Assembly (NCBI GenBank): GCA_026692735.1
Contig: JAPLOD010000082.1
Span: 1-43,540 of the forward strand
Source of the DNA: Planctomycetota bacterium
GTDB lineage: Bacteria > Planctomycetota > SZUA-567 > H5-PLA8
Length of the DNA: 43,540 nt
Direction of reading: 5' to 3'
Shown here: positions 1 to 43,540 of the stretch, one piece after another
Numbering within the stretch: position 1 is the stretch's first letter
Layout of the letters: each line of letters starts with the position of its first letter
The notes under the pieces: generated by a model
The model's database searches: none
Told to the model about the DNA's origin: nothing
The model's input: the letters and a program-made list of their open reading frames with translations, nothing else
Translations under genes and position numbers: made by a program

Positions 1-1448
1 ATGGCGATGTCCGTCTGGAACGCTTTGAGATACTCCGCGGCGGCGGCCTCGACCTGGCCGCCCATCAGCAACGCGTCGCCTGCCAGCACCTTGGGGCCGG
101 GCGCCAGGGGGTAGCGTGCGGCTCCGGCGGCGTAAGCCTTGGCTGCCACGAGGAACAGCACGCTGGGCGGCTGGTTGCGGCGCCGTTCGCGTATCGCCTT
201 CACGAACAGGTAGTCGCCGCGCATCAGTTTCGGGGCGGGGGACACTGGGCGCAGCCGCTCGCCCTCATCCAGGCACGCAAGGATTTCCTGGTGTACAGAC
301 GTGGAGCGATGTGCGCGCTGCATGCCTTCGTAGGCGACCGCCACGTCAAGCCACGCGCTGCCGTCGAACGGCGCCGCCCGCGCGGCCTTCAAACGCAGTT
401 CGGCAATCTCGCGCCGCAGTTCGCGGTACTTCTTGTCCTTGGCCAGGTCCCTGCCGTCGGGCGGCTTGGCGCGCAGCAGGCTGCGGGCTTCTTCCTCGAG
501 CGCCTCGGCGCCGCCGCGCGCCACGCCCGAGAACATGGGAATCCATGCCGCGCCGAAGAATAGGACCACCGCGAGCGCCGGCAGCAGATAGCGCGACGCG
601 CGGCCCAGCGCCGTCGGGGAACCGGCGCCAGTCTCCTGCGGTGGGGGGGCTGGCTGGCTGTCCCCCGGCGCCTCGTGCAACGCAAACATCATCCCGCCCA
701 GCAAGAACAACGCGCCCATGACAGCCTGCGCTTTGAAGTCGAAGTCAACAAGCTGGTGGACCAGCACCGCGCCCGCCGCCGCGCGCACGCTGTGCGTCCA
801 CGTGACCAGGTCCACGCCGGGGACGGAAGCGACGCTGGTCTCTTGCTGTCTGGGAACCGGCTGACTGTCGCCCGACACCGTTGGTGCCCTTAGCCCCACC
901 ACAACACACACGAAGATCCCGGGCAGGGCCAGCGTGTGCAGCGTGGAGCCGATCGTCTCCAGGTCCACTGTTCCCGCCAGCAGGCGGACAATATCCGGGC
1001 TGTTGAACACCCGGAACGCCACAAACATCAGCACGAAGCCGACAATGCCGCCGGCAATGGCCAGGTGTTCGAGCGCTGGCGCGCGTCCCCCTTTCTCCGT
1101 CGCCGGCCCTCCGCCGGTCTCCTCCACCGGCGCGCCTGCTGCGGCATCGCCATGCAACCGGCGCCCGCCGGCGTGCAGCAGCAGGCCCCAGAGCGCCAGG
1201 TAGACGAGCGGGCCGAGCACGCCGAGCTCCGCCCAGAGATGGATGTAGTCGTTGTGCGCCTCGCGCGTCTCGGTGCCCAGAGCCGTCTTAAAGTACGAGT
1301 AGTTCTCGGCGAAGCCGCCGAGGCCCATGCCGTCGAGCGGATGGTCGCGGATCATGCGGAGAGCCGCTCTCCAGTATTCGAAGCGAACTTCGAGCGAACG
1401 CGGGGCCGGAATCACGCCTGCCATGCCGAGCGCCAAGACGACAAGCAT
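1..1448 (-). CDS. O-antigen ligase/polymerase, C-terminal part with TPR-like tail (frame-shifted, runs off window)
   Basis: This reading frame is open from an ATG at 1448 to the window edge and continues the protein begun in the next entry. Just after the junction come a hydrophobic segment (LALGMAGVIP), then the Wzy_C-type stretch with RFEYWRAALRMIRDHP, GMGLGGF and EAHNDYIHLWAELGVLGP, which is the conserved periplasmic loop and following helix of the O-antigen ligase (WaaL/RfaL, Wzy_C) family. Further membrane segments follow, then a hydrophilic alpha-helical, TPR-like tail (SAWLDVAVAYEGM, GDALLMGGQVEAAAAEYLKAF), common in these proteins. The family joins or polymerises undecaprenyl-linked oligosaccharides on the outer face of the inner membrane. 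The ATG overlaps the upstream stop as TGATG, so reinitiation is possible; a one-base loss in a formerly single gene is likelier. The stop codon lies outside the window. Confidence 0.75.
   Translation of the reverse strand, partial: MLVVLALGMAGVIPAPRSLEVRFEYWRAALRMIRDHPLDGMGLGGFAENYSYFKTALGTETREAHNDYIHLWAELGVLGPLVYLALWGLLLHAGGRRLHGDAAAGAPVEETGGGPATEKGGRAPALEHLAIAGGIVGFVLMFVAFRVFNSPDIVRLLAGTVDLETIGSTLHTLALPGIFVCVVVGLRAPTVSGDSQPVPRQQETSVASVPGVDLVTWTHSVRAAAGAVLVHQLVDFDFKAQAVMGALFLLGGMMFALHEAPGDSQPAPPPQETGAGSPTALGRASRYLLPALAVVLFFGAAWIPMFSGVARGGAEALEEEARSLLRAKPPDGRDLAKDKKYRELRREIAELRLKAARAAPFDGSAWLDVAVAYEGMQRAHRSTSVHQEILACLDEGERLRPVSPAPKLMRGDYLFVKAIRERRRNQPPSVLFLVAAKAYAAGAARYPLAPGPKVLAGDALLMGGQVEAAAAEYLKAFQTDIA
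612..673. repeat. degenerate repeat inside ligase C-terminal part, copy B
   Basis: On the minus strand this encodes GDSQPAPPPQETGAGS. It resembles the stretch at 827-880, which encodes GDSQPVPRQQETSVAS. The two DNA copies share GACAGYCAGCC and a GAGACY core. They fall in hydrophilic loops between membrane segments, so this may be a repeat tolerated within the gene. I judged the similarity by eye. Confidence 0.45.
827..880. repeat. degenerate repeat inside ligase C-terminal part, copy A
   Basis: Partner of the 612-673 stretch. On the minus strand it encodes GDSQPVPRQQETSVAS in a loop of the O-antigen ligase. It is diverged from the other copy but aligned along most of its length. Confidence 0.45.
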
Positions 1449-43232: not shown

Positions 43233-43330
43233 GCCTCCCCCTTTTCCCGTTGTCCGTACACCAACGTCAAGGTGTTCCATATGCTGGACAACACATCGTG
43301 ATGCTTGACCATTACCTCAACCCACCAACC

Positions 43331-43336
43331 TGTCAA
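43331..43336 (-). promoter_or_regulatory. possible -35 element for the HTH regulator
   Basis: TTGACA reads on the minus strand about 100 bp upstream of the regulator start. No matching -10 box at 16-18 bp was found (TAATGG is the nearest), so this is weak. Confidence 0.25.
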
Positions 43337-43351
43337 CCGGCAAAATCGCGT

Positions 43352-43496
43352 AAACCCGTAGCCGACAAAAACTTACAAGAGCACCTCAAACCTGACACTA
43401 AATGGGCTGAACGGGTTTCCACACGCACAAGTCCTCATTTTTCAAAGGCTTCCTGACGATACCCAACAAGGGGGGGTAGCGTCAGGAGAGCCTCTC
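43352..43496 (+). promoter_or_regulatory. structured leader RNA with hidden ribosome binding site
   Basis: An outer inverted repeat pairs AAACCCGTAGCC (43352-43363) with GGCTGAACGGGTTT (43405-43418). A second hairpin of about 17 pairs joins 43447-43464 and 43474-43492 around a 9-nt loop; its 3' arm contains AGGAG (43484-43488), the ribosome site of the ATG at 43497. CCTGAC occurs twice (43391 and 43452), and either copy can pair with GTCAGG at 43481-43486, allowing two exclusive folds. No known riboswitch class was recognised. Confidence 0.5.
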
Positions 43497-43540
43497 ATGC
43501 GTACGTCCTCCCCCTTGAACCTCGAAGACACAGTGACGGC
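43497..43540 (+). CDS. start of a gene running off the right edge
   Basis: ATG at 43497 with AGGAG eight bases upstream opens a frame read as MRTSSPLNLEDTVT before the window ends. Fourteen codons are too few to name a product. It is divergent from the HTH regulator and follows the structured leader. Confidence 0.5.
   Translation, partial: MRTSSPLNLEDTVT

What the first reader, a model, noticed from the sequence alone, without database searches (positions are those of the whole stretch)
43352..43499. Leader hairpin that buries the ribosome binding site of a gene divergent from a pseudo-receiver regulator
Seen: a hairpin of about 17 pairs (one mismatch, one bulge) whose 3' arm includes AGGAG, eight bases before an ATG. 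An upstream inverted repeat (43352-43363 with 43405-43418) encloses a second CCTGAC that can compete for the same GTCAGG. This is the layout of a translational switch: an upstream domain, then an expression platform. I recognised no known riboswitch class. Inference: the leader controls translation of the gene at 43497 in response to a ligand, temperature, a protein or an antisense RNA. The neighbouring HTH/pseudo-receiver protein is one candidate for a partner.
Basis: partly seen in the sequence, partly recalled or inferred. Interest (0 to 1): 0.72.

Follow-up and report, generated by a model that had tools for sequence, protein, structure and literature searches.

The report
Hairpin lock on jumping-gene transposase start
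The hairpin is real, but it is not a ligand-sensing switch of a neighbouring gene: it sits in the first 95 bases of a small multi-copy jumping element (IS982 family) that landed here, where it hides the start signal of the transposase so that stray transcripts cannot make it, and similar hairpins recur in IS982 elements of quite different bacteria.

Summary
The hairpin exists as described (17 pairs, one mismatch, one bulge; AGGAG in the 3' arm, 8 nt before ATG 43497) and is far stronger than chance. Its setting was misread. From 43402 the sequence is the left end of an insertion sequence: eight near-identical intact left ends occur in this genome, each with different flanks, with an 18-bp perfect terminal inverted repeat and 5-6 bp target duplications (here ACTAA, matching contig C994). 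A complete 82% relative in the same genome (C242) and homologues encode IS982-family transposases. The window shows only the first 14 transposase codons. The "upstream domain" (43352-43363 with 43405-43418) and the competing CCTGAC lie partly or wholly in host DNA and are absent at the other seven insertion sites, so riboswitch and HTH-partner readings fall. Best explanation: the hairpin locks transposase translation, as shown experimentally for IS200 and ISPpu9. Unexpectedly the feature recurs: 12 of 21 IS982 elements from other phyla bury the start region significantly (6% of 70 control genes; p=1.5e-7), and in six a promoter-like -10 lies in or just beyond the 5' arm, so the element's own transcript would escape while read-through transcripts stay locked. 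That last step is inference, and is unproven for the window's element.

The parts
43397..43401 (.). Target-site duplication ACTAA, left copy
   Evidence: Right flank of the element on contig C994 (L017) begins ACTAAGTGAAAG; other left/right pairs share 5-6 bp.
43402..43540 (+). Left end of an IS982-family insertion sequence, cut off by the contig end
   Evidence: 98-100% identical stretch on seven other contigs, at contig ends, with unrelated flanks; complete 82% relative L009:4021-5073.
43402..43419 (+). Left terminal inverted repeat ATGGGCTGAACGGGTTTC, 18/18 match to the right ends
   Evidence: Right ends read ...GCCGCCTGAAACCCGTTCAGCCCAT.
43434..43443 (+). CTCATTTTTC, conserved spacer block; possible promoter part or transposase contact (unknown)
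   Evidence: Identical in C242; CTCATTTTTC also in the leaders of L058 and L059. No sigma-70 promoter match.
43447..43492 (+). Hairpin of 17 pairs burying the Shine-Dalgarno sequence
   Evidence: unchanged in the other intact copies; arms unchanged in C242 apart from the outer 4 pairs and one innermost pair.
43484..43488 (+). Shine-Dalgarno AGGAG of the transposase gene
   Evidence: 8 nt before ATG; same in C242.
43497..43540 (+). First 14 codons of the transposase (MRTSSPLNLEDTVT...), open at the contig end
   Evidence: In-frame match to C242 ORF MPTSSALSLEDTVTALYCALDDALAEA; 5 of 8 differences at third codon positions (from the alignment).

Best explanation
The feature is the translation-control hairpin of an IS982-family insertion sequence. 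In any transcript that contains both arms, AGGAG (and, through neighbouring pairing, the start region) is paired, so 30S subunits cannot load and little transposase is made; this keeps transposition rare and protects the host from transposase made when outside transcription runs into the element. Shown here: the element, its ends, copies and target duplications; the hairpin and its non-random strength; its independence of the flank; recurrence of start-burying hairpins of unrelated sequence across IS982 elements. Inferred: that it represses translation in the cell, and that the element's own promoter starts transcription inside or after the 5' arm so that only its own transcript is translatable (supported by promoter-like sites in other IS982 elements, not visible in this one).
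For: Mobile element: near-identical left ends at contig ends, matching right ends, 18-bp TIR, TSDs; IS982 transposase match NF033520 at about 1e-23 to 1e-35 per ORF2 fragment of relatives, Pfam DDE_Tnp_1_3. Hairpin: SD opening energy 11.1 kcal/mol, p=0.002, 10.0-11.1 in all eight flank contexts; falls to about 4-5.5 only if the RNA starts at 43454 or later. Core stem unchanged in C242 while the rest differs (0/34 arm columns against 23/93 elsewhere, Fisher p=0.0005, columns counted by hand; test). Recurrence: 21 non-planctomycete IS982 elements mean z 3.06, 12 at p<0.05; 70 control genes mean z -0.18, 6%; Mann-Whitney 1.5e-7; planctomycete group without the window p=0.011; foldings. Promoter-like sites whose start would free the site: Xenorhabdus, ISPsma1, ISEfm1, ISAba9, A. 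lwoffii, ISLll1, opening energy 13-19.5 down to 0.7-4.8; enrichment p=0.026, none upstream of the arm p=0.96. Precedents with experiments: ISPpu9 (PMC8450116: weakening the structure raised expression 26-fold), IS200 (PMC12594629, PMC3196728).
Against: No expression data. No recognisable promoter in this element or C242. C242 is only weakly non-random (p 0.06-0.22) and L058/L059 are not significant. No base-pair covariation between the two close copies because the core stem does not vary.
Confidence: 0.8

Rival explanations
1. Specific read-through lock (IS10/IS50 logic; a stricter form of the best explanation): outside transcripts carry both arms and are silent; the element's own promoter lies in the 5' arm so its transcript lacks that arm and is translated.
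For: In six IS982 elements the best promoter-like -10 lies in or just after the 5' arm with the start beyond most of it, and the start region opens (enrichment p=0.026). In the window an RNA must start at 43454 or later to open; a -10 at the conserved CTCATTTTTC would start RNA near 43450.
Against: Promoter statistics are weak, three of nine elements tested lack a site in the open zone at 8/12 or better, and no promoter is recognisable in the window's element; promoter rules in this phylum were not tested.
Confidence: 0.5
2. Constitutive damper: native and read-through transcripts both fold, translation is always low, perhaps relieved or enforced by an antisense RNA as in ISPpu9 or IS200.
For: ISPpu9 and IS200 precedents (PMC8450116, PMC12594629); no promoter found inside the arm here.
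Against: No antisense promoter found in the visible part (simple scan); rest of the element is not in the contig.
Confidence: 0.35
3. Riboswitch, thermometer or protein-controlled switch of a resident gene, with the neighbouring HTH/pseudo-receiver protein as partner.
For: Layout resembles an expression platform when only this window is seen.
Against: The unit is mobile and multi-copy; upstream domain is host flank and absent elsewhere; no Rfam match.
Confidence: 0.02
4. The palindrome acts as DNA (transposase binding or end structure), and its overlap with the start region is incidental.
For: It lies close to the left end; core arms are unchanged between copies.
Against: Nothing like it at the right end; in other IS982 elements the sequence differs completely while the position over the start stays.
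Confidence: 0.08

Closest known systems
IS200 tnpA leader hairpin (IS200/IS605 family)
   Same: Stem-loop in the 5' part of the transposase transcript hides the ribosome binding site and represses translation (PMC12594629, PMC3196728).
   Different: IS200 has an unrelated transposase chemistry and lacks terminal inverted repeats; it has a second hairpin that stops impinging transcription, not seen here.
ISPpu9 tnp 5'-UTR (Pseudomonas putida)
   Same: Leader structure buries the RBS; weakening it raised reporter expression 26-fold (PMC8450116).
   Different: Leader of about 245 nt opened by an antisense RNA; here the whole leader within the element is 95 nt and no antisense RNA is known.
IS10/IS50 inhibition of read-through expression (from general knowledge; primary papers not held in the library)
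   Same: Inverted sequence near the element's end locks the transposase start only in transcripts coming from outside.
   Different: Unrelated family; for this element the internal transcription start is unknown.
IS982 family (Fayad et al. 2020, PMC7335449)
   Same: About 1 kb, one transposase gene, terminal inverted repeats, variable direct repeats, frameshifted members known.
   Different: Inverted repeat begins AT, where 57 of 69 listed elements begin AC and 5 CC. A term search of that review found no description of leader hairpins ('untranslated' and 'ribosome' absent, 'hairpin' once, about frameshifting).

Membership tests
IS982 insertion sequences | IS982-type DDE transposase | tested here: met
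   Tested on relatives, as the window holds 14 codons only: NF033520 E 2e-29 (C242) to 7e-35 (L058) on ORF2 fragments, best match by far; 85-121 bits against a whole-protein cut-off of 130, which split ORFs cannot be expected to reach.
IS982 insertion sequences | Length near 1 kb with terminal inverted repeats | tested here: met
   C242: 4021-5073, 1053 bp with inverted ends; window's element 18/18 bp TIR between left and right ends; its full length is not assembled.
IS982 insertion sequences | Inverted repeats starting 5'-AC | tested here: not met
   Starts ATGGG; relatives mostly start ATGC or ATGA. The review reports AC in 57 and CC in 5 of 69, so this feature is usual but not universal and not defining. 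Filed as a divergent IS982-like subgroup.
IS982 insertion sequences | Direct repeats of variable length | tested here: met
   5 or 6 bp in four left/right pairs and 5 bp in C242.
Riboswitch (any Rfam class) | Match to a covariance model | tested here: not met
   No match at gathering score; weak hits only to miRNA/snoRNA families.
RBS-sequestering transposase leader (IS200/ISPpu9 kind) | SD paired in a stable leader structure more than chance | tested here: met
RBS-sequestering transposase leader (IS200/ISPpu9 kind) | Mutations that weaken the structure raise translation | not testable with these tools
   Needs a reporter assay.
IS10/IS50-type read-through lock | Native transcript starts inside or after the 5' arm | tested here: inconclusive
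   Promoter-like sites fit in six other IS982 elements; none recognisable here.

The most novel reading that the evidence does not exclude
Many IS982-family elements, across several phyla, carry a hairpin of unrelated sequence but equal position over the transposase start, with the element's own promoter nested in the 5' arm, so that one short palindrome discriminates the element's own transcript from read-through transcription. This would be a general, so far undescribed control rule of the family.
Probability: 0.5. Interest if true: 0.55.

Novelty: new member of a known kind. Interest (0 to 1): 0.45.

Why it matters
It turns an apparent orphan riboswitch into an explained part of a mobile element and warns that contig-end leader structures may be insertion-sequence ends. 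The wider result suggests that well-known elements such as those annotated ISLll1, ISAba4, ISAba9 and ISEfm1 hold their transposase silent by a start-site hairpin, which reporter assays in laboratory strains can test at once.

Tried and rejected
Rfam search at gathering score and permissive: no class. Upstream competing domain: rejected, straddles the element boundary. Covariation on close copies: only one close relative found in the genome collections, and its core stem does not vary; nothing in viral contigs or plasmids at DNA level. Planctomycete leaders alone: mixed, L055, L056, L058, L059 not significant, so the feature is not universal. The Streptomyces, Corynebacterium, Pseudanabaena, Cyanobacterium and ISLgar3 elements also lack it; some of these may have misannotated starts. 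Sigma-70 scan on the window: nothing. No structure prediction was run: the transposase family is clear from sequence and the window holds 14 codons.

Full report
What is there. A hairpin of 17 pairs occupies 43447-43492, with AGGAG (43484-43488) in its 3' arm and ATG at 43497. The region folds better than 198 of 200 dinucleotide shuffles; opening the Shine-Dalgarno sequence costs 11.1 kcal/mol against 4.0 +/- 1.8 in leaders shuffled upstream of a fixed start region (p=0.002).

Where it lies. A search of the window's own genome with 43300-43540 found ten matches. Eight of them, the window's included, are 98-100% identical, begin at window base 43402 and run to contig ends, with unrelated DNA on the other side of 43402. 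Corresponding right ends, also at contig edges, finish in GAAACCCGTTCAGCCCAT, the exact reverse complement of ATGGGCTGAACGGGTTTC at 43402-43419. Left and right flanks share 5-6 bp for four pairs; the window's left flank ACTAA matches contig C994. This is an insertion sequence, and the window (contig C82) ends 139 nt into it because repeats break assemblies.

Which element. Contig C242 carries a complete relative (4021-5073 of L009, 1053 bp, TSD TACTC) that is 82% identical over the shared 139 nt. Its ORFs match IS982 transposase models (NF033520) and DDE_Tnp_1_3. Homologues at 43-60% identity (best segment of the catalytic part) were found in seven loci of five Planctomycetota MAGs and in one Omnitrophota MAG. 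The inverted repeats start AT rather than the usual AC reported by Fayad et al. (PMC7335449), so I call it an IS982-like subgroup.

What this does to the first interpretation. The inverted repeat 43352-43363/43405-43418 and the rival CCTGAC are wholly or partly host DNA. The other seven intact copies lack them, yet the hairpin there is the same and the opening energy of AGGAG with 100 nt of native flank stays 10.0-11.1 kcal/mol. The HTH_17/receiver-like gene is simply the neighbour of this insertion. A two-domain switch is therefore not supported.

Is the hairpin maintained? Between the window's copy and C242 the core arms are unchanged, with differences only in the loop (including the innermost C-G pair) and the outer four pairs, while the spacer and the coding part differ (0/34 against 23/93, Fisher p=0.0005; columns counted by hand). 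Strictly, that shows constraint, not base-pair covariation.

Wider test. I asked whether IS982 elements in general bury the transposase start. With one fixed rule (80 nt upstream, start region -18..+15 held constant, upstream shuffled, opening energy of -15..+3), 21 elements from Gammaproteobacteria, Bacteroidota, Leptospira, lactic acid bacteria, cyanobacteria and Actinomycetota gave mean z 3.06, with 12 of 21 at p<0.05. Seventy ordinary genes from two plasmids gave mean z -0.18 and 6%. Mann-Whitney p=1.5e-7; the planctomycete group without the window gives p=0.011. The foldings show unrelated sequences with the same position, for example GGTAGTTAGAGCC...GGCTCTAACTACCATG in the element annotated ISAba4 and GGACATAACC...GTTATGTCC in that annotated ISAba9. 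Two cautions: this test was designed after six elements had been looked at, five of which are among the 21; and related elements (ISPsma1, ISAba9 and others) are not fully independent.

Promoters. In six of these elements the best sigma-70-like site puts its -10 in or just after the 5' arm and the predicted start beyond most of it; the start region then opens from 13-19.5 to 0.7-4.8 kcal/mol. Against shuffles the enrichment is modest (p=0.026), with none upstream of the arm (p=0.96). That is the layout of a lock against read-through transcription. In the window's element no such promoter is visible; an RNA would have to start at or after 43454 to open the site.

Literature. Hairpins hiding a transposase RBS are known and tested in IS200 (PMC12594629; PMC3196728) and ISPpu9 (PMC8450116). 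I found none described for IS982: term searches of the IS982 review and of the open-access library gave nothing, but most subscription papers are not held. IS10/IS50 read-through inhibition is cited from general knowledge.

Verdict. Ordinary in kind, explained in place, and more widespread than expected in its family. Membership of the riboswitch class is rejected; working like an IS200-type start-site lock is likely (0.8); the stricter read-through lock is open (0.5).

Noticed in passing
L009:4471-4486; L055-L058, L062 just before the DSHPV codons: Transposase reading frame changes by -1 at a run of C5-9 T3-5 shortly before the first catalytic Asp in most relatives (in frame in L061, which has five T). 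L055 offers a canonical heptamer C CCT TTC. Probable programmed frameshift, a possible second layer of control; -1 and +1 cases are known in IS982 (PMC7335449).
   Followed up: partly
L010 (G000:C7) 178-251, minus strand: A left end cut off after 74 nt, in the G run of the hairpin loop; the rest of the element is replaced by unrelated DNA.
   Followed up: no
left flanks of L001 (window 43352-43359) and L005: Two of nine left flanks hold an 8-10 nt inverted match to the terminal repeat within 60 nt (0.5% of random 60-mers of the window do).
   Followed up: partly
L055, about 140-230: A right-end-like repeat AACTGGAGCAACGCAT abuts a left end ATGAGTTGCTCCAGTT, separated by two bases: two elements end to end or a tandem insertion in an Omnitrophota MAG.
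   Followed up: no
43434-43443: CTCATTTTTC is conserved between the window's subgroup and the otherwise different leaders of L058/L059, function unknown.
   Followed up: no
   Followed up: partly
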